Below are positions 3,063 through 64,000 of a DNA stretch of 64,000 bases, piece after piece. Below the pieces are notes generated by a model, which was not told the DNA's origin, made no database searches, and saw only the letters and a program-made list of their open reading frames with translations. Both the position numbers and the translations under genes were made by a program. This stretch comes from a virus. Each line of letters starts with the position of its first letter. Positions within the stretch are counted from its first letter, which is position 1. The stretch is taken from positions 62,001 to 126,000 of the IMG/VR virus record IMGVR_UViG_3300027793_000052; one strand, 5' to 3'.

Positions 3063-3728
3063 GTGAGAAATCTTATTAAATCTATTTTAAAAGAAGAATA
3101 CGAAAGGGAACCACAAGTTGGTGATAATTTGTTATGCCACACTGTTACACCTGCTTTTGAACCTTATTTAACAGTAAATAAAACATATAGAGTAATTGAT
3201 GTAACATATTTTGATAATAGATTAGAGGTTTTAGTTATAAAAGACGATACTGGTATAAATCGAATGTTTACAATAAAACCAGTAATGGGGCATTCTTATA
3301 AAACATGGTTCCATTTATTAGATGATATTGATGATGAATATTTTTTTGAAAATATGTCGGAATCTGAAGAGGGTGATTTTGATTGGGTGGGTGATATCAT
3401 TGAAAAATCCAACATGTGGGAAACATTACCAAGAAATGGAAATTATATATTGTTTTATTTTTATCCAAAAATATCTTCAGAACAATTTAAAAAATATGTA
3501 ATCCCAATTTTATTAGAACAAGACATTAGAATTGAAAGTTCTGCGTCACGTAGTGGTATGGATCATCTAGAAATACATCCTAGTACACGTATACAATATA
3601 ATAATAAACTTGTTGCCTTGTTTGGTGATGTTGAATATTTCGATAAAGATGAAGAGGGATTTATTAAACAGTTATCAGAAGACGGTTCAACACCTATAAA
3701 CGGTAGAGAATTTTTTAACATACCTTAA
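3063..3728 (+). CDS. Modular cargo protein with N-terminal capsid-targeting-like peptide
   Basis: 221 residues starting at GTG 3063; the ATG at 3061 is followed directly by TGA. The N-terminus RNLIKSILKEE is the shared leader with an (I/L)-x-E site. Residues about 16-95 form an SH3-like module (VGDNLLCH... to KTWFHLLDD) also found in the protein at 25499. After a linker FFENMSESEEG comes a second module starting FDWVGDII, shared with the C-terminus of the protein at 4530. Probably a virion-internal protein cut at the leader and linker; that is inference from the repeated architecture. Confidence 0.7.
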   Translation: MRNLIKSILKEEYEREPQVGDNLLCHTVTPAFEPYLTVNKTYRVIDVTYFDNRLEVLVIKDDTGINRMFTIKPVMGHSYKTWFHLLDDIDDEYFFENMSESEEGDFDWVGDIIEKSNMWETLPRNGNYILFYFYPKISSEQFKKYVIPILLEQDIRIESSASRSGMDHLEIHPSTRIQYNNKLVALFGDVEYFDKDEEGFIKQLSEDGSTPINGREFFNIP

Positions 3729-3746
3729 ACAAATCTTTTAAAAACT

Positions 3747-3788
3747 AAAAACCCCCAATCTAATATTACATAGATGTGGGGGTTTTGT
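3747..3788 (+). terminator. Rho-independent terminator, bidirectional
   Basis: AAAACCCCC pairs with GGGGGTTTT across a 21-nt loop, and the flanking A and T runs allow it to work on both strands. It ends the transcript of the 3063 gene. Confidence 0.8.
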
Positions 3789-4515
3789 TTGCCGATAGAT
3801 TTATTCACATGAAAGGGAACCTTTGTTGACACCGTAAGGTAGGTGTGACAAGAGGGTTTTATCGATGTTATAATCGAGATCGGTCTTGTTTGTGTTTATA
3901 ACACGTGTTAAGGGAATCGGTGGCTTTTGGGTTAAGGTGCCGTGATCGTTGATTCCCGTGTGGATGATCAGTCCACTGATTAAACCTTGTGAGAGTGTGA
4001 AAGTTCTCCAATTTTTTTATTTTAACTATTGTGAAGTTTAATAAAAATACTATGACCCGTTAAAAAAAGAACAACATCTTTGAACACCACGATTGCTTTT
4101 ACTTTCCCTGTTTTTAGAGAGGTTTCAGCCTGTGTCAGTCAATTATCGGTTTCACGATGGTTCAGGACTTAGCTTCCTCTGTGGTAAACATTTACAGTTT
4201 TTATGGTGTTACAGTTTTTATTTATGAGTGGTGTCATGTCGGATGGTCGTGTTACTCTTTACTCGGGAGATTTAGGACCTTTACTTTCCACTCATTCACT
4301 TCTTCAAAGTTAAACATTCTTTTTTAAACTATCAAGAGGTTTTTAAAAATTATTTTTTTTATTTTCCCCTTACCGTTATCAGGTTGTTTAACTTAACACA
4401 ACAAAGATATGTAATTTATTTCATACCGTCAACAAAATCTTTGTTTTTTTTTTATTGTTGTGTTTTTATGTCAAATAACTTGTACAAATATATAAACAAT
4501 TTTTAACATAGACAA
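3789..4515. other. Structured non-coding region, about 730 bp
   Basis: No convincing open frame on either strand. Composition is more GC-rich than the flanking genes, and several pairings are visible: GGGAATC (about 3912) with GATTCCC (about 3950), AATCAGT-like arms around 3965-3982, and CAAGA with TCTTG around 3850-3896. This looks like one or more structured RNAs or a cis-acting DNA region. No known RNA family or tRNA could be fitted. Confidence 0.5.
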
Positions 4516-4526
4516 GATATTTATTG
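4516..4526 (+). promoter_or_regulatory. Late-type promoter motif GATATTTAT
   Basis: GATATTTATTG begins 14 nt before the ATG at 4530, the same geometry as at 3049 and 61693. Confidence 0.6.
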
Positions 4527-4529
4527 TAA

Positions 4530-5948: not shown

Positions 5949-5969
5949 ATAATTAAAATTTTTTTTATC

Positions 5970-5997
5970 AAAATCCCTCCAGTGTGAGGGATTTTTT
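5970..5997 (+). terminator. Rho-independent terminator
   Basis: AATCCCTC and GAGGGATT form an 8-bp stem with a 6-nt loop, followed by six T. It ends the polyprotein transcript just ahead of the next promoter. Confidence 0.85.
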
Positions 5998-5998
5998 G

Positions 5999-6006
5999 TA
6001 TATTTG
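5999..6006 (+). promoter_or_regulatory. TATATTTG -7 box, near-leaderless
   Basis: TATATTTG lies immediately after the terminator T-run and ends 4 nt before the ATG at 6011, so the mRNA would have almost no leader. This decides the start codon over an upstream one at 5984. Confidence 0.7.
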
Positions 6007-6010
6007 TTTT

Positions 6011-6292
6011 ATGGAAACTAAATCATATAAAGTTGGTGGTTATCTTTATTGTATCAAACCTGTTATAATGAAAAACGGTAAACTACAAGGTAAAGCTGTG
6101 ACCAAAGTTGGTAAACACTATAAGATATTAGATGTAACGAAAAAAAGGTTTTACATAAGGGATGATAATAAACAATGTCATTCATTTGATTTTGATGGTT
6201 ATAGGGAATGGTTTATACATACCGAAAAAATGATTAGAGGTGTTAATAAAATTGTTGATGAAATTATCGACAACGATGTTTTTTGGGAATAA
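6011..6292 (+). CDS. SH3-like small barrel protein
   Basis: 93 residues from ATG 6011, chosen because it sits 4 nt after the -7 box. The sequence KVGGYLYCIK, KVGKHYKILDV, KKRFYIRDD and YREWFIHTEK follows the barrel module seen in the proteins at 3063 and 25499 (VGDNLLCH... KTYRVIDV... KTWF). A free-standing version of the module carried by cargo proteins. Ligand unknown. Confidence 0.7.
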   Translation: METKSYKVGGYLYCIKPVIMKNGKLQGKAVTKVGKHYKILDVTKKRFYIRDDNKQCHSFDFDGYREWFIHTEKMIRGVNKIVDEIIDNDVFWE

Positions 6293-6315
6293 ATTTATTA
6301 TATTATATATAAAAA

Positions 6316-6510
6316 ATGGAAAATAACGAAAAAAATATAGGTTGGTCTAAAGATAAAGCTGAAAAATCTAAACAAGAATTACTAACTGAATTAAAAAAAG
6401 AATACGGTATCTCAGATGATAATTTAACTTGGGTGGATAAAATGTTGACTGAAATAATTCAAGAACAGGATGATAAGTTAAAACAAAATAAAAATGAGAA
6501 AAAGAGGTAG
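6316..6510 (+). CDS. Small helical protein, unknown
   Basis: 64 highly charged residues, predicted helical, with a Lys/Glu-rich middle (KDKAEKSKQELLTELKKEYG). It overlaps the next frame by 17 bp if that gene uses its first ATG. No family recognised. Confidence 0.55.
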   Translation: MENNEKNIGWSKDKAEKSKQELLTELKKEYGISDDNLTWVDKMLTEIIQEQDDKLKQNKNEKKR

Positions 6511-6766: not shown

Positions 6767-6770
6767 AATT

Positions 6771-7025: not shown

Positions 7026-7052
7026 AGGATTATCGGAAATGGATATAAATAT

Positions 7053-7439: not shown

Positions 7440-7487
7440 ATATCTACATTTTCTTTATCTTTGGTGTTATCTTTATTTTTTAACATG

Positions 7488-8111
7488 TCATTTAAGTTTT
7501 GGTAATATTGATAATAATCTTTCTTCCCATTTTTTATTAATTTCCTCGATAGGTGGGATGTCTAAGTACTCAGTTTCCGTTGTTTCATTTTCTTGGATAT
7601 TATCAACCAATTCCATTACCCAAAAATCAGTACCATCGGTATTTTTACCTTTTTTTGTTAGTTTATACATAAATTCATTTATAAATATTTTTGTAATTTC
7701 ATCATATCTAACTAAAGAGTTATTATCTAAAACTTCATGGGTCGTTCTAATAACTTTGTTAGGCTTAATATTTGTTAATAGTCTTCTAGTTAACCCCAAA
7801 ATTATAGATATAACCATTCTTTTATTTTTAATACTATTAGGTATATATCTACTAACCTCATCTCTTTTTAACATAAAACCTGTTATAGGTTTATTGTTAG
7901 TATCAACAACCATAAAACAATATGAATATTTACTGATATCGTTATTTATTTTTTCAAAACCAACGAATAAGTATAATTTATCCCCATTATTATCATCTTT
8001 AGATATTAATGTAGTAAACACACCTTCTTCCGGTGAATAGACATTAGATTCCCACTCATCTATTTTAGAAACCATTTCCTCAATTAATATCTTCTTAATT
8101 AAGTCTCTCAT
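7488..8111 (-). CDS. Cargo protein with capsid-targeting-like leader
   Basis: 207 residues on the minus strand. The leader RDLIKKILIEEM is the shared N-terminus with an L-I-E site. The remainder is a globular alpha/beta domain (YLFVGFEKI, YCFMVVDTNNKPITGFML) without a recognised fold. A plus-strand frame over the same bases is Phe/Leu-rich and is a shadow. An AATATTTATA motif lies about 40 bp upstream on the minus strand. Likely packaged in the virion, by analogy with the other leader-bearing proteins. Confidence 0.7.
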   Translation of the reverse strand: MRDLIKKILIEEMVSKIDEWESNVYSPEEGVFTTLISKDDNNGDKLYLFVGFEKINNDISKYSYCFMVVDTNNKPITGFMLKRDEVSRYIPNSIKNKRMVISIILGLTRRLLTNIKPNKVIRTTHEVLDNNSLVRYDEITKIFINEFMYKLTKKGKNTDGTDFWVMELVDNIQENETTETEYLDIPPIEEINKKWEERLLSILPKLK

Positions 8112-8180: not shown

Positions 8181-8191
8181 ATAATTAAAAT

Positions 8192-13849: not shown

Positions 13850-14332
13850 ATGAGAAATCTCATCAAAAAAATCATAAAAGAAGAACTTAAAAAAGATAAA
13901 ACCATAACCTGCAACAATTGCGGATGGTCTTGGAAATTATCTGAAGCAGGAAATGATCCTTTTAATTGCCACAAATGCTTATCCAACAACAATCAAGTTA
14001 CAATAAAAGAAGAAACAAAAGAAAAATACCCAATTTCAATTGGTGATGTTTTTAGGGTTAATAAGGAAAACATATTGATTATGATAGAATCAATCAAATG
14101 CAACCCCAAAAAAGCTAGGGTAATGACAAAACATACAATATTTGGGAACCATGAAATTTTCCATGATGGTTGCGATGTTTATTATCTCAGAAGCATAGAC
14201 GGTGGTGAAACATGGTATGATGATGATGAATCTAAAACAGAACTTAATTGGATTCCGGTCATAATTTCAAACGGCCATTGGAAATTGTTACATGGTGGGT
14301 CAGAAGATATTGGAGATTTTTTCCCAGAATAG
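13850..14332 (+). CDS. Zinc-ribbon cargo protein with capsid-targeting-like leader
   Basis: 160 residues. Leader RNLIKKIIKEE (site I-K-E) is followed by a zinc ribbon CNNCGWSWKLSEAGNDPFNC to CHKC (residues about 21-44), a module I recall at many positions in Bacteroidota-phage structural proteins. The C-terminal part has an SH3-like start ISIGDVFRVNKEN and ends near W-I-P-V-I. Probably a packaged protein with a nucleic-acid-binding ribbon. Function inferred from context only. Confidence 0.7.
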   Translation: MRNLIKKIIKEELKKDKTITCNNCGWSWKLSEAGNDPFNCHKCLSNNNQVTIKEETKEKYPISIGDVFRVNKENILIMIESIKCNPKKARVMTKHTIFGNHEIFHDGCDVYYLRSIDGGETWYDDDESKTELNWIPVIISNGHWKLLHGGSEDIGDFFPE

Positions 14333-16711: not shown

Positions 16712-17098
16712 ATGAGAAACCTAATCAGGAAAATATTAAAGGAAGAAGTTATTAAAAGTTTTCTAATGGAACTTGATTCTTTAAATATACCCAAAGAAGA
16801 TTATATCATATTTGGTTCAGGCCCCATGGCAATTAAAGGATTACTTGAACCTTCAGACCTTGATGTTGTGGTAAGAGAAAATGTATATAAGGAAATGTTC
16901 GGTAATAAGGAACCAATAAGAATCGGTAATATAGAATTATGTTATACATGGCCTGATATGGATATAGAAGAATTATTTAATAATGTAGAATGGTATGATG
17001 GTTATCCATTTGCCTCCATTAGTATGGTAAGACAATATAAGAAACAAATGAATCGACAAAAAGACATAGAAGATTTAAAGTTATTAGACCCTGAGTAA
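16712..17098 (+). CDS. Nucleotidyltransferase-like cargo protein with leader
   Basis: 128 residues. Leader RNLIRKILKEE (site L-K-E) is followed by a minimal nucleotidyltransferase fold: FGSGPMAIKG (glycine-serine motif) and SDLDVVV (catalytic D-x-D), then a beta strand IELCYTW. The family transfers NMP groups to proteins, RNA or small molecules (MNT/HEPN antitoxin, kanamycin NTase-like). If the leader is a capsid-targeting sequence, this enzyme would enter the cell with the DNA. The substrate is unknown. Confidence 0.7.
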   Translation: MRNLIRKILKEEVIKSFLMELDSLNIPKEDYIIFGSGPMAIKGLLEPSDLDVVVRENVYKEMFGNKEPIRIGNIELCYTWPDMDIEELFNNVEWYDGYPFASISMVRQYKKQMNRQKDIEDLKLLDPE

Positions 17099-18024: not shown

Positions 18025-18831
18025 ATGAAAAATCTAATTAAAAAGATATTGAAGGAAAATGATTTTAATCCAGATGATTTTAGTTGGGTTAATTTGGAAT
18101 TGGAACCAATTAGAGATCGTAAACATAGATCGGAAATTATTGAAGATACAATAGCCAAAGTTAAAGAATATAAGGGTTGGAGAATATATAAGGATAAATT
18201 TAATGGTGTGGTTTATTGGGATGGTACTGAAGGTTACACTGGTATGGCGACACCTGAATGGGATGAGGCTTTTAAAATACCTGTTGATATAAGCTATCAT
18301 AATGATTATGATAATGTAACTGTTATACATACCCCTGAATTTAAATACGTTGTGGAGTTACAGGAATGGTATAGTAAAAATTATTTTGAGATTGTGTATA
18401 AAGTACTAACCGATTATATAAACCAAGATGAGGTACCTGGTATAATTGAAACAAAAAGTTTAATTAAAAAGATATTGAAGGAAAATGAATGGGAATGGGC
18501 AGAAGATTTGATTGGTGGTGATAGTTTATATGCCAAAGCCATGTCATTAATTCCTGAAAACCTTAATGAATATAATAGATGTCTTATTTTATTTGAGAGG
18601 GAATTAGATTGGGATGAAGCCCAAATTTTATTAAAAGTCCTTAGGGAGAAAGGTTGGAAGATAACTGAAGTTTCGGATGATAGTAGAATTAAATGTATTC
18701 TTAAATATAGTAAAACTCACGAAGGATATGTTAATTTAAAAAATCCTTTTATTTCATTTGGGGATTCTAGGTATACGTACAACAATGTTAATTCTGTTAA
18801 GTGGGAAGATGTTTTAAAAATTAAAATTTAA
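18025..18831 (+). CDS. Double-leader cargo polyprotein
   Basis: 268 residues with the leader KNLIKKILKEN at the start and a second copy, SLIKKILKENEWEWAED, at residues about 145-161. The second copy equals the N-terminus of the next gene (KNLIKKILRENEWEWAEE at 19175). Thus two leader-bearing cargo domains are fused. The second half (YNRCLILFERELDWDEAQIL then LREKGWKIT) is the repeated module of the proteins at 3063 and 4530. Cleavage at both L-K-E sites would release two proteins. Inference; function unknown. Confidence 0.75.
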   Translation: MKNLIKKILKENDFNPDDFSWVNLELEPIRDRKHRSEIIEDTIAKVKEYKGWRIYKDKFNGVVYWDGTEGYTGMATPEWDEAFKIPVDISYHNDYDNVTVIHTPEFKYVVELQEWYSKNYFEIVYKVLTDYINQDEVPGIIETKSLIKKILKENEWEWAEDLIGGDSLYAKAMSLIPENLNEYNRCLILFERELDWDEAQILLKVLREKGWKITEVSDDSRIKCILKYSKTHEGYVNLKNPFISFGDSRYTYNNVNSVKWEDVLKIKI

Positions 18832-19174: not shown

Positions 19175-19861
19175 ATGAAAAATTTAATTAAAAAGATATT
19201 AAGGGAAAATGAATGGGAATGGGCGGAGGAAACATTGGACCGAGCAGTTGATCCTTATAGAATGGATGTAAATGAATTAGTTTATTTTCTTAATCAATTT
19301 TTTCAACAAAATAAATCCCCAAGATTTAATAGAACATATGTGGCAGAATATGATAGAGGTACCTTTACCATTGGTGATGAAACAGGATTATATGTTTCAA
19401 TGTTAGATACGGATGAAACTTTTTATTATGCCATAAAATCTTTAAAAAGAAGCATAATAAGTCTAACCAATAACAGAGAACTATTGGATGAATATCAGGA
19501 TTTATATGATACATTAATACCTTTGATAAAAGAAGATATAATGGAACAGGCAAACGATATGGACTGGTTTAATATCGATGATATGCCAGAACCAAAAGGA
19601 ATTGCCCTAGCAAATATAATTGAAGAATATTTCAAAGATAATAATTTACCTTATCATATTATGATAAGACAAGATAATGCCGTTATATACATCAAAGATA
19701 CCAATTTTATATATTTTAGCGGATGGACCGAATTATTCACCATGGATAATATTATTAATGATATAATGATTGATTTAGATTCCTTACAATCATCAAAAAG
19801 CATTAATAGATGGAATATCTTATACAACAATCTTAAATCTTTATTTGATAAATTAAAATAA
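19175..19861 (+). CDS. Cargo protein with capsid-targeting-like leader
   Basis: 228 residues with leader KNLIKKILRENEWEWAEE (site L-R-E), identical in design to the internal leader of the previous gene. The rest is helical, with two related halves: DVNELVYFLNQFFQQN and ALANIIEEYFKDNNLPYH, each followed by beta strands and a segment of YLDTDE or YFSG type. AATATTTAT begins 16 nt before the ATG. Function unknown. Confidence 0.7.
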   Translation: MKNLIKKILRENEWEWAEETLDRAVDPYRMDVNELVYFLNQFFQQNKSPRFNRTYVAEYDRGTFTIGDETGLYVSMLDTDETFYYAIKSLKRSIISLTNNRELLDEYQDLYDTLIPLIKEDIMEQANDMDWFNIDDMPEPKGIALANIIEEYFKDNNLPYHIMIRQDNAVIYIKDTNFIYFSGWTELFTMDNIINDIMIDLDSLQSSKSINRWNILYNNLKSLFDKLK

Positions 19862-20449: not shown

Positions 20450-20740
20450 TGGAACAAGATTTGTACTGGATGGCCGGCCTATGGGGACCCCCTGTATAGC
20501 CCCCCGGCGGGGGTGCCCGTATCCCCCCTCCCCCTCTGGGAGGGTCTGCGGGGTAGAAAGCGGGGTTCGGTTCCCCATTCATATCCGGGACCTGGTGGCA
20601 AAATTTTCCGGGAAAAATTTAAGCCAAAAAAGCGTTCCTAAAATTCCGGGAAAAATTGTCTAGAAAAAGGACCCCACCCCCTACATAGTTAAAAACCTAT
20701 TCCGGAATTTCCGGGAAAAAATTCACCCATATTTGTTTCT
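20450..20740. other. GC-rich non-coding island with CCGGGAAAAATT repeats
   Basis: About 290 bp with long C and G runs (GACCCCCTG, GCCCCCCGGCGGGGGTG, CCCCCCTCCCCCTCTGGGAGGG), in a genome otherwise below about 35% GC. The right half holds three copies of TTCCGGGAAAAATT (near 20606, 20644, 20709). No gene. Composition suggests a foreign insert or a cis-acting DNA site. Confidence 0.6.
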
Positions 20741-24038: not shown

Positions 24039-25046
24039 ATGTATCAACCAAAGCTATATTTAAGATTCGATAAGCCAATTCAAAATGATAAAATCGGTAT
24101 TGAACAATTGAACAAAATTTTGCGTTTGATTGAAATTGTTTACCCTGAAGTTAGTTGGTGGGATGGTACATCACCATCTGGATGGAATCCATTTACTGGT
24201 GAAAATGATGATATACCAGATATAGTTAAATCTTTAACCATTGGCTATTGGCCTGATGGACCAAATAAATTAACTTACGGTATTTGGGATACAAATGACT
24301 ATAACTATTCAAATGCTATTGATGGTTGGGCATGGTTTAACAATTTTAATTTTGATGCGGATGAAACCAGTACAATGTTTGAACCCATTGATGAATCCAT
24401 TAAACGTGATTGGACGATTGATGATTTAAAATTTTTACACGATGATAAGGTTTTATTTTATGAAATTGGTTCCGATGGGAATGCAATAAAACACCCTGAT
24501 ATTATGGGTGATGACATGGGTGATATTTTATATATCGGAATTCAAGATGGTAGATATACTGTTTGTTATAAATTAGAAGGTGGTGAAGATATAAAAGGTA
24601 TTGAAGAATGTTTAATGTCGTCTGAAAATTCTATTCTTAAATGGTTAAATGACGGAACATTACAACCAACACATAAATTTATAAATTTTGATATAGACGA
24701 TATGCTTCAACCAATTAACGAGTCCAATCGTAAAAAAGACGATATTTTTAGAATTGGTGATTATGTCATTGTTAACGGTTATTATAACGGCGACATAGGT
24801 TCAAGTAATAATAAAATCGTTTATTTTGATGATGATTTTGCTCAAATAATTGATACCTATATGGGAAGTGATGGTTTATGGTATTTGTTAGAATTTGAAA
24901 CTAAAAGAATTAATTTCCCAAAATCAACACCAAGTAATCAAATTTATCTTATGAACGATAATTTTGATGGAAGTAGTTTTAAAATGGAAATTACCATCGA
25001 ATACCCCGAAGAGTTAGATTTGGACACAATTTTTGGGTATAATTAA
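24039..25046 (+). CDS. Modular virion polyprotein with cleavage-like junctions
   Basis: 335 residues from ATG 24039, which follows GATATTTAT by 16 nt; an in-frame ATG at 24021 is upstream of that motif. Junctions DADETSTMFEPIDES (about residue 113) and DIDDMLQPINES (about 227) contain I-x-E sites. The first module (YQPKLYLRFDKPIQN) matches module 3 of the 4530 protein including the DADETSxMFxPIxE end; the last (FRIGDYVIVNGYYNG) is SH3-like. A shuffled relative of the 4530 polyprotein. No LIKKILKEE leader. Confidence 0.75.
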   Translation: MYQPKLYLRFDKPIQNDKIGIEQLNKILRLIEIVYPEVSWWDGTSPSGWNPFTGENDDIPDIVKSLTIGYWPDGPNKLTYGIWDTNDYNYSNAIDGWAWFNNFNFDADETSTMFEPIDESIKRDWTIDDLKFLHDDKVLFYEIGSDGNAIKHPDIMGDDMGDILYIGIQDGRYTVCYKLEGGEDIKGIEECLMSSENSILKWLNDGTLQPTHKFINFDIDDMLQPINESNRKKDDIFRIGDYVIVNGYYNGDIGSSNNKIVYFDDDFAQIIDTYMGSDGLWYLLEFETKRINFPKSTPSNQIYLMNDNFDGSSFKMEITIEYPEELDLDTIFGYN

Positions 25047-26592: not shown

Positions 26593-27474
26593 ATGAAAAA
26601 ATTATTAGTAACAGAATCTCAGTTAAAAAGTATTAAAAATTATCTGATAGAGGCTAAATTAAGGTCTTACGTTTTTGATTGGGACGACAATATATTAAGA
26701 ATGCCAACAAAAATATTCCTTAAAAGTGATAAGGGTGATGTTGTTGGTATGTCTACAGAAGATTTCGCCACCTATAGAAGTAAAGTGGGTAAAGAACCTT
26801 TTAAATATGAAGGATATGTGATTACAAATTTTGATGATGATCCTTTTAGAGATTTTAAAGATTATAAATCATTTATAAGAGACACAGAAAAGGCCATACA
26901 CAACCAAAGTTTTGCACCAAGTTACAAAAAATTTATTGAAGCTTTGATTTATGCCAACCCTTTCGCTATTAATACAGCTCGGGGACATAATCCTAAAGCA
27001 CTTAAAGAAGGTGTTAAAGTATTTATTAACATGGTGTTAGAACCAAAAGAAAAAGAAATAATGGTTAGTAACATCAAAAAAGAATTACCAGTTAACCTAA
27101 CAAAAGGTTTAAATAATGAACAATTAATTGATTTATATTTAGATGAAAGGGGTGAGTATTATCCCGTATCATCCGAAGAATTCGGTCAAAGATTTGGTTT
27201 GGAAACTTCTGGTGGGGCAGCCAATCCTGAACATGCAAAACAAGTAGCTATAGAACATTTTGTTAAAAAACTTTTAGATGGTGTTAAAACATATGTGGTT
27301 AAAGGTAAGTACAAAAAAATATCTTTAGGGTTTTCTGATGATGACATTAGAAATGTTAAAGGTGTTGAGGAATTTATCGAAACGGAACTAAAAAAATTAT
27401 ACCCTGAAGTAAATTTTGTTATCTATGATACTTCTGAGGGTGGTAAGAAAAAAATGGTGGTACAAAAAGATTAA
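26593..27474 (+). CDS. HAD-superfamily hydrolase, cargo-type
   Basis: 293 residues. The N-terminus KKLLVTESQLKSIKNYLIEA has an L-I-E site. The HAD core follows: FDWDDNILRMP (nucleophile Asp), NTARGH (motif II) and LGFSDDDIRNV (motif IV). The insertion between motifs I and II is large. HAD enzymes dephosphorylate nucleotides, sugars or nucleic acid ends; a similar phage family exists but the substrate is not known. The stop overlaps the next gene's ATG. Late-type motif CATATTTAT is 23 nt upstream. Confidence 0.75.
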   Translation: MKKLLVTESQLKSIKNYLIEAKLRSYVFDWDDNILRMPTKIFLKSDKGDVVGMSTEDFATYRSKVGKEPFKYEGYVITNFDDDPFRDFKDYKSFIRDTEKAIHNQSFAPSYKKFIEALIYANPFAINTARGHNPKALKEGVKVFINMVLEPKEKEIMVSNIKKELPVNLTKGLNNEQLIDLYLDERGEYYPVSSEEFGQRFGLETSGGAANPEHAKQVAIEHFVKKLLDGVKTYVVKGKYKKISLGFSDDDIRNVKGVEEFIETELKKLYPEVNFVIYDTSEGGKKKMVVQKD

Positions 27475-28433
27475 TGAACTTAAAAAGTTTAATAAAGGAA
27501 CAATTAATATTTGAAGGTAGAATAGAAGATGCCAAATCTTTTGTCGTTAAAGATTTCCAAGATTTATTAATACCACAATCTTACAAAGAAGGTGAAAGAA
27601 TGCCAGAATGGTTTCAAAAGTTAGTGGATAGTGATCCGTCTGGTAATCAAAAATATTTAATGTGGGCCTTAAAACAAATTAAAAAACACTCAGGTAAGTT
27701 CCATCCTTTTATATTAACCGATGTGGTCTTAGAAAAAATTATAGAAGGTTTTGTTAATTTTCATAAGTTACAAGACAAACTAAATAAAGAAAATATAGAT
27801 AAAGTGGTGTCTTGGAAAGCTGTATCGAACCCAACGGAATTTAACATAAACTACGGTATGGATTCACCTTACTTTAAGTTTAGATACCCAATAGAAGAAC
27901 TAAATAAAGTATTGAGTAATCCGAAAGACATAAATTCTTACTATGACTTTTATATGTTATGGGAGATGGTGAATGCTGTAAAACAATTACCTACTAGAGC
28001 TGACTTGAAAAAGGAGGCCGTAAAACTTACTGATGATAATTATTGGTTGGTGATAGTACCTATGTCACATAGGGCTTCATGTAGTTACGGTTCCAATACT
28101 AGATGGTGTACAACATCAAAAGAAGATACACAATACAATAAATATCAATCCAATACAAGTAGTTTGTTTTATTTCATACCTAAAACAAACCCTTTAAAAT
28201 CACACCAAGATTATTTTGTAGAATATATGGATGTTGAATATGATTTAAGTAAAATTGCATTACATATGAATTTTGAGGGTGATTTAATTTTTTATGACGC
28301 TTCTGACGGTGAAATAGAAAGCTATGACGTAACAAATCTTGTTGCTCAAGTATATGGATTAGAATCCGCACAATCTTTCGGTACAAGTGTGTTAAAAGCT
28401 GAAGACTATCATAAATCCAAAATAGAAAAATAA
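27474..28433 (+). CDS. SCxYGxxTxWCTT-family cargo protein
   Basis: 319 residues. Leader NLKSLIKEQLIFEGRIED (sites I-K-E and I-F-E), then DPSGNQKYLMW, then VIVPMSHRASCSYGSNTRWC followed by TTSKED. Two longer members of the family lie at 37389 and 61707. The invariant Ser-Cys-x-Tyr-Gly and Trp-Cys-Thr-Thr look like an active or metal site, but no activity is known to me. Overlaps the HAD gene by 1 nt, so the two are probably co-packaged. Confidence 0.7.
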   Translation: MNLKSLIKEQLIFEGRIEDAKSFVVKDFQDLLIPQSYKEGERMPEWFQKLVDSDPSGNQKYLMWALKQIKKHSGKFHPFILTDVVLEKIIEGFVNFHKLQDKLNKENIDKVVSWKAVSNPTEFNINYGMDSPYFKFRYPIEELNKVLSNPKDINSYYDFYMLWEMVNAVKQLPTRADLKKEAVKLTDDNYWLVIVPMSHRASCSYGSNTRWCTTSKEDTQYNKYQSNTSSLFYFIPKTNPLKSHQDYFVEYMDVEYDLSKIALHMNFEGDLIFYDASDGEIESYDVTNLVAQVYGLESAQSFGTSVLKAEDYHKSKIEK

Positions 28434-36535: not shown

Positions 36536-37338
36536 ACTTTGTAAACACTTTTACCAGTTGTTGTATTAAAGTTTATTAAAACTAACATTAATTTTTTTGG
36601 TATTATCACAGTGTTTTCTGTAAAACTGAAAAAATCTGGTTGATTTCTAAACACAGCCACATGATATTCTGTACCCGTATCTTTACCAAATACGATTAAA
36701 TCTGTATCATATTCTCTTCTTAAAGAGTTTGTTTTTACAATATAATAATCACCTTCTTTTTCAAGACCAGTAAAAGGTTTAACTTGGGTTGTAAGTCCAG
36801 AACTTTTTGGTGGTAAAATTTTACCGTTTGAAAATATTTTCATGTCTATTCCCATAAAATCTAAAGTACCTCCAGCTTCAGCCAACATATCAACTTTAAT
36901 TACCCCTGGTAAAGTTTCTATTGTACTTTTAACATAATTTTCTCTTTTAGTCCCACTACTTCTTGTTTTATTTATAGCATCAACAATAGAATTTTTTAAT
37001 GCTGAATTAGGACCAAATATTTCAAACATATCTTCTATTATTTTTTGTAAAAATAATTTATTTTCTTCACTATTTTTTTGTGAAAAATTTTTATTATAAG
37101 TAATATGATTGCCGTATTTATTTTTTAAGTAAGGTAGTACAACTTTATCTCTAACAGTCCAATGTGTGTTTATAAAATTGTAATTAGACCAATTTGGGTC
37201 GTCGTTAGGTGTTATTGGTCTTATAATACCATAATTACCTGAAGGTCCACGACCCCAATATTCGGTATTACCATAAATTTCTTTTAATATATTATTTATA
37301 ACAACTTTATATTCGTTTTCAAAAGGAGAATAAGCCAT
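36532..37338 (-). CDS. PD-(D/E)XK nuclease-like protein, paralogue
   Basis: 268 residues on the minus strand. The leader-like start has VVINNILKEIYG (L-K-E). GTKRENYVKSTIETLPG, FMGIDMKIFSNG and TTQVKPFTGL give the same helix-Glu, acidic strand and Q-x-K core as in the convergent gene at 35399, with which it overlaps by 4 bp. Expressed from the shared palindromic motif at 37356-37371. Confidence 0.6.
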   Translation of the reverse strand: MAYSPFENEYKVVINNILKEIYGNTEYWGRGPSGNYGIIRPITPNDDPNWSNYNFINTHWTVRDKVVLPYLKNKYGNHITYNKNFSQKNSEENKLFLQKIIEDMFEIFGPNSALKNSIVDAINKTRSSGTKRENYVKSTIETLPGVIKVDMLAEAGGTLDFMGIDMKIFSNGKILPPKSSGLTTQVKPFTGLEKEGDYYIVKTNSLRREYDTDLIVFGKDTGTEYHVAVFRNQPDFFSFTENTVIIPKKLMLVLINFNTTTGKSVYKV

Positions 37339-37388: not shown

Positions 37389-39071
37389 ATGAAAATTATT
37401 TTAGATAAAATAAGAGAAGTATTAACGGAAAGTAGGGTTGAAGATGTAAAAAAGAGATTCCCCAACGTTGATTCACAAATTATAGATTATTTCGTAAATA
37501 ATGACCCATCCGGCAATCAAAAATATTTGGATTGGATGGTTAAAGCTATAACACACAAGCCAACATTACAAACTATTGGTAATATAATGGGTAATAATGA
37601 ATACCTTGATGGTGGTTATTGGGGTGGGACAGCCGCTTTTATTTCTGTTTTAATTAATAGATTCCATAACCTATTACCGTATTTAGTACATGAAGAAAAC
37701 GGTAAAAAGGTGGGTACTACTGATTTATATCAATATAAGTTTAGTGATAGTGAAATGATAAATTATTTGATTTTTGATTTAGATAGAGCTGAAGAACGTA
37801 AAAAAAAGAAAGAATTATCTAAAAAATTAAAATCTGAAGCTGATAAAATTTATGAAGATAAAAATTGGTTGGTTGTAAGAGCTAGGACTTGGGAGGCTTC
37901 CTGTCATTATGGTGCTGGTACAAAATGGTGTACAACTTCAAAAGAAAGTGATACCCATTTTAAACGTGAAACAGACCGTCAATTTTTGATTTATGTAATT
38001 AATAAAAATGAAACTTCTGAAAATCCATTATATAAGGTGGCTTGGCAAATACCTTATGATAAAAAAATTAATAAATACATGAAATTTGGTTTAGAAGGTG
38101 ATTGGGAGATTGATTGGTCAAAGATTAAATTGTGGAATGCCGAAGATACAAATATTGCAAATCGTTTAGGTAGTGAATACTTACTTTCTGTACCTAAAAA
38201 AATTAAGGCAGAGATTTTAAAATACATGCAAAATAAAATGGATGAGATGTATGAAAATATGGGTTATGTTGATGATCCAAATATTCAGGCATTGGTTACA
38301 TATTTGGGTTTAACACAAGAAGAGGCTGACGAGGTAATAGAAGAAAGGTATACACATTATGGTTTAAAAATTTATACAAATGATGATCATGGTTCATACG
38401 CTGTGGGAATATTTGAAGAGGCACAAAACGCTTTAAGAGAATGGGCTGAAGGTTATTATGATGACATTGGTCCTTTTGAAATAATGGGTGATAGAATTAA
38501 ATATTATGTCACAATACCTGATGCTGATAATATAGCCTCGGAAGATGCTACTTTTTATGTTGATGATATTAGTGATGATGATTTAATTGATTACGCCAAA
38601 GGTTATAGTGATGATATTGATAATCTTATTGAGGAGTATAATATTAATAGTGGTATATTGGAAGGTTTTGACGATGAAATATCTGAATTGATGACCAAAT
38701 TAGAACAACAAGAAATATCGGAAGAAGAATATAAAAAAGAAATGGAAGAATATGAGGCCGAAAAAGAAGAAATGGAAGAATATCAACCAAAATTATTAGA
38801 AAGAATACGTGAAAAATATAGGGATGAAATTTATAAAGATAAATTACGTCAGATGGAAGATGACCCATGGGATTGGTTGCGGGAAATGGGTTGGGCAGAT
38901 AGAAATGGTTTAAGTAAAAACGCAATAAATAGTGGTCTTGTTGAAATTAATCGAGAATCTTTAATTGATGACCTTGTAGATGGTTGGGATTTTGAGGTAC
39001 TTAGTGATGATGGTCGGTGGGATGAGGTCAATGTTGATAGTAGAACTTATTATATATTTAATGTTTCATAA
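37389..39071 (+). CDS. SCxYGxxTxWCTT-family cargo protein, long form
   Basis: 560 residues. Leader KIILDKIREVLTES (L-T-E), then RVEDVKKRFPNV and DPSGNQKYLDWM shared with the protein at 61707. The core is VVRARTWEASCHYGAGTKWC followed by TTSKES. The C-terminal half is very acidic, with coiled-coil repeats (KEEMEEYQPKLLERIREKYR) and a Trp-rich end (DPWDWLREMGW). Probably a large packaged protein. Confidence 0.7.
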   Translation: MKIILDKIREVLTESRVEDVKKRFPNVDSQIIDYFVNNDPSGNQKYLDWMVKAITHKPTLQTIGNIMGNNEYLDGGYWGGTAAFISVLINRFHNLLPYLVHEENGKKVGTTDLYQYKFSDSEMINYLIFDLDRAEERKKKKELSKKLKSEADKIYEDKNWLVVRARTWEASCHYGAGTKWCTTSKESDTHFKRETDRQFLIYVINKNETSENPLYKVAWQIPYDKKINKYMKFGLEGDWEIDWSKIKLWNAEDTNIANRLGSEYLLSVPKKIKAEILKYMQNKMDEMYENMGYVDDPNIQALVTYLGLTQEEADEVIEERYTHYGLKIYTNDDHGSYAVGIFEEAQNALREWAEGYYDDIGPFEIMGDRIKYYVTIPDADNIASEDATFYVDDISDDDLIDYAKGYSDDIDNLIEEYNINSGILEGFDDEISELMTKLEQQEISEEEYKKEMEEYEAEKEEMEEYQPKLLERIREKYRDEIYKDKLRQMEDDPWDWLREMGWADRNGLSKNAINSGLVEINRESLIDDLVDGWDFEVLSDDGRWDEVNVDSRTYYIFNVS

Positions 39072-46943: not shown

Positions 46944-48379
46944 ATGATAATATCAGAAAAAATATTTGAAAAGATCCTGATAGAAAGTGGAATACGTAAT
47001 ATACGTAATTTGTCTTATAGATACGATAAGGCAAAAATCTACTTTCATCAGGATCTTTGAGGGAACTTGATGGTGTTACAACGGCTATAGCTATGAAAAA
47101 ATACCTAGAAGATAACGGTATTAAGGTTGTAGAGTGTGAAGTGATACAATACGGTGACCAAGAATTTTCCATTAAAAAACCAATGGCAAGAGGTGATATC
47201 ATGCCAGTTTTAGTTGACTTCGCTCACGGTAAACCGATGTTTGTTATACATACAGATCATCACGATAAGCAAGTAGGTGCTGAAGCTGGAGCTTCCAAAT
47301 CATTTAGACACTCTAGGTCCAACGTCGAGACAATTTCTCAAATAATATCAACTAAAGAATTATTCCCTAGTTTTGATATTAATATGATTTCCACTATAGA
47401 TAGTGCTAATTACGCTAAAATGGGTATATCTCCTGAACAGGTGATGAATTATGTATTTGGGTTAGATAAAGAGAAAAGTTTAGAGGATAACAAAAAGGCT
47501 ATGGCTCTTGTTTGTAATAAACTTTTGTTGGCTTATAAAAACAAACCAAGATTTTTAGAAAGATTGGTTATGGAATCTAGTCCATCATTGTTAAACATAT
47601 ACCAAAACATAGTTAGAATGGCTAAAGAAGAGGGTTATTCCTCACCAGAGGTTATGTCACAATATTCTAAAGAATATGGTGAAACTATGAAGAATAGTGA
47701 AAATGTGAAATATGATGAAAAAACAGGTATTATTTCACAATATGGTGGTGGTTCTATGATTAAACCCGGATCTTATGACAGATACGTACCTTTTAAAAAC
47801 TTTCCTGACGCTAACTTCTTAATTATAGCTTGGCCTTTAGGTTTACTACAGGCATCATGTAACCCATTTAAACCTGAAAGGTCTATAAAGGGTATAAATT
47901 TGGGTGAAATAGCACAGGAAGTATTAAAAAAACACGAACAGGAGTTAAAAAACACAATAATAAGTGTAGACACTTTAAAATACTTCGCCGAAAAACACAA
48001 ATCTTTTTCAGAGGAGAGTGTTGGTTTTACATTTAAAGATTTAATGTCACTATATGGTGATATTGGTGAAGGTGTTAGGGGTTTAAACACAATTCCAGAA
48101 GGTGCCGCACCTGATTATACGGTTGAAAGATGGCAAAACGCTATAAAAAATGTGATGGACAAACATTACTCAACTTTGGGTGAAAGAGAAATTAAGGCAT
48201 TAAAAATGTTGTCTATAACTGGTTGGGATATTATCCAAGCAAACAGTGGGGGACACAAATGTATAACTAACATATCGGGGTTAATGTATTTCGGCAAGGA
48301 TGGTGTTCTTTGGCTTAAAAAATTACAATCCGAATTTATTGAAGAATTAAAAAACTTAATATTACAAAATGAAAACTAA
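46944..48379 (+). CDS. DHH-family phosphoesterase interrupted by an 11-nt insertion (bypass candidate)
   Basis: The frame from ATG 46944 encodes 38 residues (EKIFEKILIESGIRNIRN then KIYFHQDL) and stops TGA at 47058. A second frame resumes as DGVTTAIAMKKYL from 47069. Joined, HQDLDGVTT makes DHH motif I (HxDxDG); VDFAHG and HTDHHD follow as motifs II and III. The whole protein would be about 474 residues. The leader I-L-I-E-S is cargo-like. Take-off CTT 47055-47057 and landing CTT 47066-47068 suggest translational bypass. DHH enzymes hydrolyse short RNA or DNA. Confidence 0.75.
46970..47068 (+). other. Putative ribosomal bypass element
   Basis: A near-perfect stem pairs 46970-46988 (AAAGATCCTGATAGAAAGT) with 47041-47058 (ACTTTCATCAGGATCTTT), one bulged base. 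It ends on the take-off codon CTT, which is followed by stop TGA and, 8 nt on, by landing codon CTT. Between the arms CTTAT-AGATACG-ATAAG forms an inner hairpin. Confidence 0.5.
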
Positions 48380-55254: not shown

Positions 55255-55701
55255 ATGGAATTAATATCAACGCATATTTGTAAAGGTAAAGAAGAAGGTG
55301 TTCATGGTAACATTTTTGGTGGCGTTCTATTATCAATGATAGATGAAGGATCTGGTGCTTACGCTTCCCAAATCTGTGACACACCGAGAATGGTCACAGT
55401 AAAAATAGATGAGTTAATTTTTAAAAGAGCGGTAAAGGTTGGTAATATTATTAAATTGTACGCTAAAGTAACTGAATTTGGTAATACTTCAGTTACTTTA
55501 TATGTTGAACTTAGAAAACATAATGTATATACAGGTGAACAGGAAATTGTTTTACACACCAATATAAAGTTTGTTAGAATAGACGATGAAGGTAATCCAA
55601 TACCTATATCTGAACGTGTTAAAAAAAGATATTACGAAAGATTAAAAAAATTCGGTAAGGGATTGTTAACTACAGAAGAAAAATTGGTTGAAAATAACTA
55701 A
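55255..55701 (+). CDS. Acyl-CoA thioesterase, hotdog fold
   Basis: 148 residues in the YciA/BACH-like hotdog family. NIFGGVLLSMIDEGSGAYAS carries the catalytic Asp/Asn (IDE), RMVTVKIDELIFKRAVKVGN is the beta strand, and ITEFGNTSVTLYVELRKHN follows. Cleaves acyl-CoA thioesters. An auxiliary metabolic gene in a phage, perhaps redirecting fatty-acid or CoA pools; substrate not deducible. Convergent with the gene at 55698, 4-bp overlap. Confidence 0.8.
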   Translation: MELISTHICKGKEEGVHGNIFGGVLLSMIDEGSGAYASQICDTPRMVTVKIDELIFKRAVKVGNIIKLYAKVTEFGNTSVTLYVELRKHNVYTGEQEIVLHTNIKFVRIDDEGNPIPISERVKKRYYERLKKFGKGLLTTEEKLVENN

Positions 55702-56030
55702 ACTTCTCTATATACGTGAACATCGTAAACAGATAAACAAGGTTTGTCTTCAGCTGTCACTTCAGATTTTGTTTTATAAACAAAAATAGGTCCTTCTGTA
55801 TATGTAATATAACGAAGATTTTTAGTTTCTTCATCATGACCTAAAAACATAACCCTAACATCATCATAACCATATTCACCTAATATTTTTTTAACCAAAT
55901 ATTTTAAATCTTCACCAGTACAAGTTATCGAATCTAATCTAGATGCAATATCCTCAACGTTAAAGTCGTTAATACGAGCTTCTATTAACTTTTTTATCTG
56001 ACTTTCTTTTAAAATTATCTTTTTTGCCAT
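55698..56030 (-). CDS. Small cargo-type protein with leader
   Basis: 110 residues from ATG 56030, preferred to a start at 56126 because GATATTTAT lies between them on the minus strand. Leader KKIILKESQIKKLIEARIND contains both L-K-E and L-I-E. The rest is soluble (TCTGEDLKYLVKKILGEYGY). Shares a divergent motif pair with the nucleotidyltransferase gene. Confidence 0.65.
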   Translation of the reverse strand: MAKKIILKESQIKKLIEARINDFNVEDIASRLDSITCTGEDLKYLVKKILGEYGYDDVRVMFLGHDEETKNLRYITYTEGPIFVYKTKSEVTAEDKPCLSVYDVHVYREV

Positions 56031-61584: not shown

Positions 61585-61588
61585 AAAT

Positions 61589-61666
61589 CTTAACGTTTAG
61601 GACCGTTAAGTTATGTGGGGTGAAAGCCCCCGACTAACCCGTGTGTTCGCTCCATACGGGTTTTTT
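61589..61666 (+). ncRNA. Three-hairpin RNA element ending in a terminator
   Basis: CTTAACG-8 nt-CGTTAAG (61589-61610), GGGG-tgaaag-CCCC (61617-61630), then ACCCGT-13 nt-ACGGGT (61637-61661) with a T6 tail. Only the last is a standard terminator. The first two conserved-looking stems may be a small regulatory RNA or 3' UTR structure of the preceding mRNA. Confidence 0.55.
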
Positions 61667-61692
61667 AATGTTTATTTTATATTATAAATGAT

Positions 61693-61703
61693 GATATTTA
61701 TTA
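61693..61703 (+). promoter_or_regulatory. Late-type promoter motif GATATTTAT
   Basis: GATATTTATTA begins 14 nt before the ATG at 61707. Confidence 0.6.
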
Positions 61704-61706
61704 CAT

Positions 61707-64000
61707 ATGAGGACTAAATTTTTGTTAGAAGAATTAATATTTGAAGGTAGGTTGGAGGATGTTAAAAAAAAATATCCTGAAGTACCTGAAGAGTTTGTAG
61801 AAGAATTATCAAGGAAAGACCCTTCAGGTAATAACAAGTATTTGGATTGGATGGTTAAACGGAAATCGTCTGATGTAACAATACCTATGATTGTTAAATA
61901 CACAAATTTATTCCATAAAAATTTAAATAAACTAACTAAAGAAAATTTAGATGAGTTTGTTAAAAGTAGTAGTAGATTTGATTGGTTGTTAACAGACGAC
62001 AGTCCAATCGCTAAGGAATTTCAAAAAATATATAAATCACCAAAAGATATAAATCAATATACGGATTGGGTTTTATTTGTTGAGGTAGTAAAATTCATTG
62101 ATGAATTACTAACTAAATCTGACGTTAAAAAATTAGAAACTAAAACATTATATAATGATGATAATTTATTAATATTAATACCTTTATCACATAAAGCGTC
62201 TTGTTTTTATGGTTCTGGCACTAAATGGTGTACAACAAATAAGGAATCTGACAATTATTTTAAAAGTTACAGTTCAAAAGGCACCCTATTCTATATAATA
62301 AACAAAAAAGAACCTCAATCAAACCCTTGGTATAAAGCGGCCATTTTTTTCAACAATGACGGCAATGCTGAAGCTTATGATGCTCCAGATAAACCAACAT
62401 CTATTAAAGTAGCTAAAGATAGTATACCTAATTGGGATACTGTTCGTGATGTTATTGTGGATTACTTATCATCTAACAACAAAAAAGGTATTGATAAGTT
62501 ATATTTCGGTGATGAACTAATAACTTGGGTTGATTCATTAGGTTTGGATCCATTAAAAACTTTATCTTATGATAGATTTATTAAAGAATTAGGGGTTGAT
62601 AAGGCATATGAATATATGGTTAAAAAACAAGTTGATCCTATAGATTACATTGAAGGTGCTGATAATATATTTTATTTTTACTCACAATTAATTAAGGATG
62701 AACTTAAAACTGTTAAAACCTTATGGGAATTAGCCAAAAAAAGAAATTACAACCCTTTTGATTTTTTAGATTTTTCTTCTTCTAGTGTTAAATCATTATT
62801 AAATGCAATAATAGAAAATATTATAAGTTTAGATGATTTTTTAAACGAAATCATGAAACATAAATACAGTATAAATAACCTTTTCGGTCATCTTAGTAAT
62901 GCTACCACCGCTGAATATATTATTAAACTTTTTAAAACAAATAATACTGATAGTAATAAAGAGGCTGTTAATTTATTTTTTAATTTTTGTTTTGAGGCTG
63001 ATATAAACCCTTTTAATAATTTAAACCAAAGAGTTATAAAAATTATTTTAGATGTTTATAGTATTGAGGAAAAAATAGATTTTATTTTAAAAAATATTAA
63101 TTTAGTACCAAATGACGTTGAATTATACAAATACGGTATAGATGATGGACAAATATTTGCTTATTGTGATGAAGAAGAAATTAAACTAATATTATCAAAG
63201 AATTTACTTAGTGATATTAATTTAGATTTGTACATAAAAGTTTTTGGTAATTCACCAGAAACTTATTGGAGGTATATTTCACATATAACAGGGTTACATA
63301 TTGATATTATAAAATATAGATTAATTAATACTAGAGATTTTGTTGAAACTTATTTATTTGTAACAGGGGTTAGAAAAATATTCCCAACACTTGATGATTT
63401 ACAAAAATCTATAAACGACTTAGTTGGTTTGGACGAAGATGGTGATAATATAGTTGATGTGTTGTACAACGTCTCAACTCAAGTTGTTGTGGATGATTTT
63501 TTTAACAAAAATTATTATGAAGCTTATTTAAATTATAAAAAATTAGATATCTTGGATGATTTTGATGATTTATTTAAAATTTGTGCTTACAATTCCGCAC
63601 CACCAGAAGATAAAGAAATTAAAGAAGAAGTTCTATCTATTATTGAACATAGTTTTGGGGGTTACCGTAACGGTCAAATTAGGGAAGAGGGTGGAAGTTT
63701 TTATTTAACAATCGATGATTTATGTTATTTAGAAGATTTGTATACTGAAGTTTCTGGTAAAATTGTCTGTGGTGAAGATATTATAGATTGGTATGGTTAT
63801 GATGCTGATGAAGCTGTCCCAAGTGTTTTAGAAGTAAAGGGTGTTTCCGAATTAATTAGAGACTATTTGATGGAAGAAATGCGTAATAAAAAAATAACTT
63901 TAAAAGACTATTATATTGACGATTTTGAAAGTTGGGTGGAGGATTACGATGAAGATAACGGTAAATTTTCAATTACGTTATATGATGAAAGAATTGTGGG
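61707..64000 (+). CDS. SCxYGxxTxWCTT-family cargo protein, very long, partial
   Basis: At least 764 residues, open to the window edge. Leader RTKFLLEELIFEGR has L-L-E and I-F-E sites; LEDVKKKYPEVP and DPSGNNKYLDWM follow. The core LIPLSHKASCFYGSGTKWC then TTNKES is the family site. After it come long helical repeats (LKTVKTLWELAKKRNYNPFD, EEKIDFILKNINLVPNDVEL) and an acidic Trp-rich region (DDFESWVEDYDE). The largest and presumably packaged member of the family. Confidence 0.75.
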   Translation, partial: MRTKFLLEELIFEGRLEDVKKKYPEVPEEFVEELSRKDPSGNNKYLDWMVKRKSSDVTIPMIVKYTNLFHKNLNKLTKENLDEFVKSSSRFDWLLTDDSPIAKEFQKIYKSPKDINQYTDWVLFVEVVKFIDELLTKSDVKKLETKTLYNDDNLLILIPLSHKASCFYGSGTKWCTTNKESDNYFKSYSSKGTLFYIINKKEPQSNPWYKAAIFFNNDGNAEAYDAPDKPTSIKVAKDSIPNWDTVRDVIVDYLSSNNKKGIDKLYFGDELITWVDSLGLDPLKTLSYDRFIKELGVDKAYEYMVKKQVDPIDYIEGADNIFYFYSQLIKDELKTVKTLWELAKKRNYNPFDFLDFSSSSVKSLLNAIIENIISLDDFLNEIMKHKYSINNLFGHLSNATTAEYIIKLFKTNNTDSNKEAVNLFFNFCFEADINPFNNLNQRVIKIILDVYSIEEKIDFILKNINLVPNDVELYKYGIDDGQIFAYCDEEEIKLILSKNLLSDINLDLYIKVFGNSPETYWRYISHITGLHIDIIKYRLINTRDFVETYLFVTGVRKIFPTLDDLQKSINDLVGLDEDGDNIVDVLYNVSTQVVVDDFFNKNYYEAYLNYKKLDILDDFDDLFKICAYNSAPPEDKEIKEEVLSIIEHSFGGYRNGQIREEGGSFYLTIDDLCYLEDLYTEVSGKIVCGEDIIDWYGYDADEAVPSVLEVKGVSELIRDYLMEEMRNKKITLKDYYIDDFESWVEDYDEDNGKFSITLYDERIV

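What the first reader, a model, noticed from the sequence alone, without database searches (positions are those of the whole stretch)
3063..64000. A shared N-terminal capsid-targeting-like leader on many unrelated enzymes
Seen: M(K/R)NLIKKILKEE or a variant with an (I/L)-x-E site opens at least 12 genes: 3063, 8111 (minus), 13850, 16712, 18025, 19175, 26593, 27474, 37338 (minus), 37389, 46944, 56030 (minus) and 61707. Downstream domains differ completely: nucleotidyltransferase, HAD, PD-(D/E)XK-like, DHH, zinc ribbon, SH3. Known: T4 internal proteins carry a short leader cut by the prohead protease after (I/L)-x-E. Inference: this phage packages a large set of enzymes with its DNA. The most likely undescribed system here.
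Basis: partly seen in the sequence, partly recalled or inferred. Interest (0 to 1): 0.92.

Follow-up and report, generated by a model that had tools for sequence, protein, structure and literature searches.

The report
Phage cargo-packaging tags and cleavable polyproteins
A giant T4-like phage puts the same short, apparently cut-off address tag on at least 17 otherwise unrelated proteins, and strings some of them together with the same cut site between them, which suggests it ships a large set of proteins into its host inside the virus head.

Summary
The window is part of a 318-kb T4-like phage contig. The leader is real: M(K/R)xLI(K/R)KI(L/I)xE opens 17 genes genome-wide (6 in the window), with Glu11 in 17/17 and conservation collapsing right after it. 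The genome encodes a gp21-type (S77) prohead protease and a gp23-type capsid protein whose propeptide carries conserved (I/L)xE sites (12/12 relatives; 37 versus 5.6 sites per 1000 residues in the mature part). Homologues place a domain boundary exactly at (I/L)xE: a CCA-adding enzyme has the leader directly in relatives but two extra domains ending in INE here; a HAD-like protein has 8 diverged leaders, all ending (I/L)xE, and leaderless homologues start at the same place; all 37 distinct DHH-family N-termini fit. The exact leader occurs in 84 viral stretches, and once in 257 Gb of cellular genomes, on an apparent phage contig. Unexpectedly, several long ORFs join cargo domains at (I/L)xE|(S/N)E..DFxW(A/V) junctions, so they look like polyproteins diced by the prohead protease. 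Best explanation: T4-like capsid targeting, greatly expanded and extended to polyproteins. Packaging, cleavage and injection are inferred; no virion data exist. Most cargo identities are unproven. New variant of a known kind.

The parts
3063..3095 (+). canonical leader MRNLIKSILKE (GTG start) of gene 3063-3728; an internal MSE|SEEGDFDWVGD junction at aa 100
   Evidence: 24.1 bits; ATATTTAT upstream; internal junction
8079..8111 (-). canonical leader MRDLIKKILIE of gene 7488-8111
   Evidence: 24.1 bits
13850..13882 (+). canonical leader MRNLIKKIIKE of gene 13850-14332; CxxC..CxxC zinc-ribbon-like start of mature part
   Evidence: 24.5 bits
16712..16744 (+). canonical leader MRNLIRKILKE of gene 16712-17098; nucleotidyltransferase-like by motif only
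   Evidence: 26.5 bits; no family hit over cut-off
18025..18057 (+). canonical leader MKNLIKKILKE of gene 18025-18831
   Evidence: 26.8 bits
18451..18483 (+). second, internal leader copy TKSLIKKILKE followed by NEWEWAEDLIG inside gene 18025-18831: predicted polyprotein junction
   Evidence: the unit after it is homologous to aa 350-470 of the 4530-5948 gene
19175..19207 (+). canonical leader MKNLIKKILRE of gene 19175-19861, followed by NEWEWAEE
   Evidence: 25.7 bits
4530..5948 (+). predicted polyprotein with (I/L)xE junctions (LNE|GTYQP near aa 236, LIE|TNEFDWVGD at aa 359)
   Evidence: the LNE| unit matches stand-alone gene 24039-25046; the LIE| unit matches the second half of gene 18025
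26593..26652 (+). type-B leader MKKLLVTESQLKSIKNYLIE of HAD-like gene 26593-27474
   Evidence: 8 homologues all end the leader in (I/L)xE; leaderless homologues L137 and L138 start M(K)KNKRIYVFDWDDN
27474..27515 (+). leader MNLKSLIKEQLIFE| of the 'YGxxTxWC' family gene 27474-28433
   Evidence: (I/L)xE|(G/S)R boundary conserved in relatives
37389..37430 (+). leader MKIILDKIREVLTE| of a second 'YGxxTxWC' gene, 37389-39071
61707..61745 (+). leader MRTKFLLEELIFE| of a third 'YGxxTxWC' gene, 61707 to beyond the window end
46944..46985 (+). leader MIISEKIFEKILIE| of a DHH-family gene whose frame is interrupted at 47058
   Evidence: 37/37 distinct DHH N-termini have (I/L)xE|(S/T)GI(R/K); interruption
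37279..37338 (-). possible leader MAYSPFENEYKVVINNILKE of gene 36532-37338 (unproven)
   Evidence: site only
55980..56030 (-). possible type-B leader MAKKIILKESQIKKLIE of gene 55698-56030 (unproven)
   Evidence: sequence only

Best explanation
The leaders are capsid-targeting propeptides that work like those of T4 internal proteins. The short basic amphipathic N-terminus attaches a late-made protein to the prohead core, the gp21-type S77 protease cuts after (I/L)-x-E, and the mature protein stays in the head, is packaged with the DNA and is delivered to the next host. This phage uses at least 17 canonical leaders (probably 30-60 including diverged ones) and also builds polyproteins, in which several cargo domains sit behind one leader or N-terminus and are separated by (I/L)xE|(S/N)E..DFxW(A/V) junctions that the same protease would cut. 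Shown by sequence: leader, protease gene, site conservation, domain boundaries at the site, candidate late-promoter motif. Inferred: core binding, cleavage, presence in virions, injection and function in the host.
For: 17 canonical leaders with E11 in 17/17 (E was not required in selecting them) and information falling from 3.5 bits at E11 to 1.3 and then below 0.8. Codons for the same residues vary, so selection is on the peptide. S77 protease (PF03420, E 7e-31) between portal and gp23-type MCP genes. MCP sites LYE51| and (I/L)(S/N)E60| conserved in 12/12 relatives; site density 37.4/1000 in the propeptide versus 5.6/1000 in the mature part. CCA-adding enzyme: NINE|NVVRKK here, MKNLIRKILKE|EVVRKK in relatives. 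HAD-like: 8 diverged leaders ending (I/L)xE, leaderless homologues start at the same point. DHH: 37/37 distinct N-termini. Polyprotein units equal stand-alone leader genes (g045 aa 211-326 is 75% identical to g059; g007 aa 252-599 matches L067); junctions also in other phages (L076 1154 aa, L077 865 aa). ATATTTAT upstream of 10/17 core and 23/43 leader genes versus 51/333 others (p 1e-7), also before terminase, portal, protease and many other genes. Leader pattern: 84 viral stretches versus 1 hit in the cellular collection.
Against: No virion proteomics or cleavage data. (I/L)xE is short and common (about 12 per 1000 residues), and mature parts of leader proteins are not depleted of it (17.6 versus 12.4 per 1000), so cargo would have to resist by folding. 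The S77 gene was found in only 8 of 20 leader-bearing records and 5 of 10 others; most misses may be fragments, but a 214-kb record also lacks it. The canonical leader is absent from the roughly 150 kb searched of the 160-kb relative immuto. In some junctions the P3 residue is M or V. AlphaFold of the CCA polyprotein failed (pLDDT 33), so junction accessibility is untested. The ATATTTAT motif is a promoter only by inference.
Confidence: 0.82

Rival explanations
1. The leader proteins are prohead core/assembly factors: targeted and cut as proposed, but acting in head assembly and then leaving or being degraded, rather than being cargo delivered to the host.
For: Type-B leaders cluster beside protease and MCP genes in relatives; T4 core proteins gp22, gp67 and gp68 are also cut at L/I-x-E and mostly removed (PMC9026906); (I/L)xE sites are frequent in the mature parts.
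Against: Cargo includes a CCA-adding enzyme, DHH-like and HAD-like proteins, which have no obvious scaffold role, and the set varies between phages as T-even internal proteins do.
Confidence: 0.1
2. The leader directs proteins to some other site (membrane, replication compartment or another complex) and (I/L)xE is just a conserved helix end, or is cut by another protease.
For: A basic amphipathic N-terminal helix could bind membranes or proteins; no direct proof of cleavage exists.
Against: Glu and the hydrophobic P3 are the constant boundary while leader length and sequence vary; the same site dominates the capsid propeptide; polyprotein junctions repeat the site without the leader.
Confidence: 0.06
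3. The shared N-terminus comes from gene duplication, recombination at shared 5' ends, or a translation/promoter signal, with no protein-level role.
For: Some leader genes are paralogues (g012/g281, g045/g059) and many share an upstream ATATTTAT.
Against: Codons vary while residues stay; most downstream domains are unrelated (alignment A1 conserves residues 1-11 only); diverged leaders of different length keep (I/L)xE at the same domain boundary.
Confidence: 0.02

Closest known systems
T4/T-even internal proteins (IPI-III) and Alt with the capsid-targeting sequence, cut by gp21
   Same: Short N-terminal leader shared by otherwise unrelated proteins; cleavage motif L/I-x-E; S77 protease; gp23-type capsid. 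In IPIII the first 10 residues suffice, residues 4 and 7 target and 8 and 10 direct processing (PMC9026906), which resembles L4/I5 and L9/E11 here.
   Different: At least 17 leader genes against 3 IPs plus Alt in T4 and about 10 IPs reported in relatives (PMC12373910); leader sequence differs; cargo includes a CCA-adding enzyme; polyproteins with internal sites, for which I found no T4 counterpart.
phiKZ/SPN3US ejection proteins
   Same: Giant phages with many head proteins cut after a Glu motif and ejected (PMC5694885).
   Different: Their propeptides are mostly longer than 100 residues (SPN3US gp45: 20) and the phiKZ protease is MEROPS S80; here leaders are 7-20 residues and the protease is S77.
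Polyvalent proteins of phages and conjugative elements (Iyer et al. 2017)
   Same: Multi-domain proteins carrying unrelated activities, proposed to be packaged and delivered; their authors compare them with RNA-virus polyproteins (PMC5512222).
   Different: Processing there is attributed to embedded peptidase domains; here no peptidase domain was found in the polyproteins and the cut sites match the phage's separate prohead protease.

Membership tests
T4-type capsid-targeted internal proteins | short N-terminal leader shared by otherwise unrelated proteins | tested here: met
T4-type capsid-targeted internal proteins | leader ends in L/I-x-E | tested here: met
   17/17 own leaders; 37/37 DHH; 8/8 HAD-like
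T4-type capsid-targeted internal proteins | gp21-type S77 prohead protease encoded | tested here: met
   PF03420, E 7e-31
T4-type capsid-targeted internal proteins | gp23-type capsid protein with propeptide sites of the same motif | tested here: met
   (sites conserved; cutting itself not shown)
T4-type capsid-targeted internal proteins | late expression | tested here: inconclusive
   shared ATATTTAT motif with head genes; promoter activity not shown
T4-type capsid-targeted internal proteins | protein present in virion without leader | not testable with these tools
   needs virion proteomics
T4-type capsid-targeted internal proteins | injected into host with DNA | not testable with these tools
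   needs infection assay
phiKZ-type ejection proteins | long propeptides (mostly >100 aa) and S80-type protease | tested here: not met
   leaders of 7-20 aa, S77 protease
Polyvalent proteins | several unrelated domains in one polypeptide | tested here: met
   g195: two SH3-like repeats plus CCA enzyme; g050: 5 junctions
Polyvalent proteins | embedded peptidase domain for processing (a common, not universal, feature) | tested here: not met
   no peptidase Pfam hit in g007 or g195; g050 was scanned within alignment A1 and no peptidase was among the matches

The most novel reading that the evidence does not exclude
A family of giant T4-like phages encodes polyproteins of head cargo: unrelated domains strung together behind one targeting leader and diced inside the prohead by the prohead protease, each released piece keeping a common DFxW(A/V) N-terminal tag, so that one targeting event loads several effectors in fixed ratio. 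The retained tag may itself bind a common partner in the head or the new host.
Probability: 0.6. Interest if true: 0.85.

Novelty: new variant of a known kind. Interest (0 to 1): 0.74.

Why it matters
A searchable leader plus an exact cut site makes the delivered proteome of uncultivated giant phages predictable from sequence, including many unknown proteins that may act at the moment of infection, as T4 IPI-III act against host restriction enzymes. Polyprotein cargo cut by a capsid protease would, if true, be a packaging strategy I did not find described for tailed phages. The leaders could also serve as tags to load foreign proteins into large heads.

Tried and rejected
AlphaFold2 of the CCA polyprotein g195 (pLDDT 33): uninformative. 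AlphaFold2 of the HAD-like protein (pLDDT 76) gave an N-terminal helix 8-21 before the first strand, but Foldseek found no significant PDB match (best HAD-domain hit E 0.3), so HAD rests on motif only. Pfam, PHROGs, NCBIfam and PADLOC on window leader proteins: no informative hit over cut-off. PDB sequence searches for HAD, DHH and nucleotidyltransferase: nothing useful. Depletion of (I/L)xE from mature cargo: expected by one version of the model, not found. Flavobacterium phage immuto as a cultured model: no canonical leader in the stretch searched. tblastn of the 37389 protein in named phages: no match. A relative search for polyprotein g050 found only the same phage. A translation-signal or simple gene-duplication explanation was rejected on codon variation and boundary conservation.
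Full report
WHAT THE WINDOW IS. The window is positions 62001-126000 of a 317,983-bp virus record. I fetched the rest in stretches and called 376 genes with a simple hexamer-based script. Record coordinates minus 62000 give window coordinates. The record encodes a terminase, a gp20-type portal, an S77 head-maturation protease (g196, record 138056-138868) and a gp23-type capsid protein (g202, record 142300-144069) in T4-like order. The closest capsid proteins in named phages are those of Rhodothermus phage RM378, Microcystis phage Mel-JY01, Flavobacterium phage immuto and a huge uncultured phage.

THE OBSERVATION. Six in the window belong to one tight leader, M(K/R)xLI(K/R)KI(L/I)xE, and the genome has 17 such genes; the next scores drop from 23.5 to 14 bits. 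Against internal segments of the same proteome, 25 N-termini reach 12 bits where 0.7 are expected (the scoring model was trained on the 17). Glu at position 11 was not required when the 17 were collected, yet all have it. Information content is 3.5 bits at E11, 1.3 at residue 12 and below 0.8 afterwards, and synonymous codons vary. The other seven sites share only (I/L)xE. That is weak alone: (I/L)xE at residues 5-23 occurs in 140 genes where 76 are expected, which suggests some 60 genuine cases but does not say which.

PROTEASE AND ITS SPECIFICITY. The prohead protease belongs to Peptidase_S77 (E 7e-31), the gp21 family. T4 gp21 cuts after L/I-x-E (PMC9026906). As an independent test I took the capsid protein of this phage and of 11 relatives: the propeptide region has 37.4 (I/L)xE sites per 1000 residues against 5.6 in the mature part, and LYE51 and (I/L)(S/N)E60 are present in 12 of 12. 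They lie close to where T4 gp23 is cut, judged from the alignment. So the specificity predicted for this protease is the one at the end of the leaders.

DOMAIN BOUNDARIES FALL EXACTLY ON THE SITE. (a) CCA-adding enzyme g195 (PF01743, E 2e-35): here leader, two SH3-like repeats (32% identical; SH3-like is my reading of the sequence, not a profile hit), then ...KPNINE|NVVRKKINMDLP; in relatives L109-L114 MKNLIRKI(L/M)KE|E(V/M)VRKKIHMDLP. (b) HAD-like protein (window 26593): eight diverged type-B leaders such as MKKFLITETQYKKLRKSLLE|NKLRSYVFDWDDN all end in (I/L)xE, while leaderless homologues begin MKKNKRIYVFDWDDN. (c) DHH-family protein (window 46944): 37 of 37 distinct N-termini have (I/L)xE directly before (S/T)GI(R/K), behind leaders as different as MKRLIKE, MKIIITETQYKRLINE and MKNLIRKILKEHTLILE. 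(d) The family with the YGxxTxWC motif (27474, 37389, 61707 and others) has (I/L)xE|(G/S)R at the same place in most members. Together these show a detachable, exchangeable N-terminal element with a constant last tripeptide.

POLYPROTEINS. Seven of the 17 leader proteins, and none of 359 others, carry a second motif just after the site, (D/E/N)(F/W/L)xW(A/V/F). The same motif, usually preceded by (I/L)xE, recurs inside long ORFs: g050 (871 aa, five copies), g007 (three units), g045, g095, g124 (with a full internal leader), g195 and g204. Some units correspond to stand-alone genes: g045 aa 211-326 is 75% identical to leader gene g059 and related to a dozen leader genes of other phages; g007 aa 252-599 matches leader gene L067; aa 239-359 of g095 match gene g133, which begins at that point; the C-terminal part of g050 matches g024, with LKE|GRYD against MSNLLNE|GRYD. 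Other phages have 1154-aa and 865-aa ORFs with such junctions. I read these as polyproteins of cargo domains to be separated by the prohead protease. That they are cut is inference.

EXPRESSION AND DISTRIBUTION. ATATTTAT occurs within 40 nt upstream of 10/17 canonical and 23/43 canonical-plus-variant leader genes against 51/333 others (p 1e-7), and also before terminase, portal, protease and many other genes; the TAnnTTTG motif (known to me as Bacteroidetes-type) precedes 37 other genes and no leader gene. It is a candidate late promoter. The exact leader DNA pattern occurs in 84 stretches of viral contigs and once in 257 Gb of bacterial and archaeal genomes, on a 63,985-bp contig of a Prochlorococcus single-cell assembly that has the same length as one of the viral records. 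An S77 gene was found in 8 of 20 leader records, including four of the five above 200 kb.

HOW IT MOST LIKELY WORKS. By analogy with T4, where ten leader residues suffice to target a protein to the prohead core and gp21 then removes them (PMC9026906, PMC5694885), the leader binds the core, the protease frees the mature protein, and it is packaged with DNA and delivered. T4 IPI-III block host type IV restriction enzymes and share only this kind of leader (PMC12373910); the variable cargo here could play a similar arms-race role. I found no defence-system hit among ten cargo proteins, so this is conjecture.

LIMITS. No virion data. Cargo identity is secure for one enzyme only; HAD, DHH and nucleotidyltransferase labels rest on motifs or sub-threshold hits. 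Mature cargo is not depleted of (I/L)xE. The leader proteins could be core components rather than delivered cargo. The total number of leader genes (17 sure, perhaps 30-60) is an estimate.

VERDICT. The kind of mechanism is known; the leader family, the number of cargoes and the polyprotein arrangement make this a new variant of considerable interest, testable with one virion proteome.

Noticed in passing
window 47046-47080: The DHH gene is interrupted: after HQDL (codon CTT) comes TGA at once, then 8 nt further a second CTT after which the frame continues as DGVTT, exactly as in relatives. The 11-nt insertion is present in two other assemblies of the same phage. A matched codon pair with a stop right after the first recalls translational bypassing in T4 gene 60 (from memory), but a simple inactivating insertion is equally possible.
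   Followed up: partly
window 20470-20600: A GC-rich, hairpin-rich patch (runs of C and G) in a 29% GC genome; single copy in the record, no Rfam match.
   Followed up: partly
genome-wide; e.g. upstream of window 3063 (ATATTTAT) and of window 20768 (TATTATATTTGTG): Two alternative upstream motifs, ATATTTAT and TAnnTTTG, seem to split genes into late-like and early-like sets.
   Followed up: partly
window 27474-28433, 37389-39071, 61707-64000; also g057, g071, g204, g208 outside the window: An uncharacterised family with an ASCxYGxxTxWCTT motif and a DPSGNxKYLxW stretch, seven copies in the record, most behind (I/L)xE leaders.
   Followed up: partly
L114 5061-7677: The CCA-adding enzyme gene of this relative is split by an insertion whose product (MENWEQIAKELLPKEY...) looks unrelated to the enzyme, possibly an intron or homing element.
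   Followed up: no
L234, L235, L237, L240: Type-B leader genes (MKKIIKLNENDIENLVKKIIKE|) are clustered next to protease and capsid genes, five in L237.
   Followed up: partly
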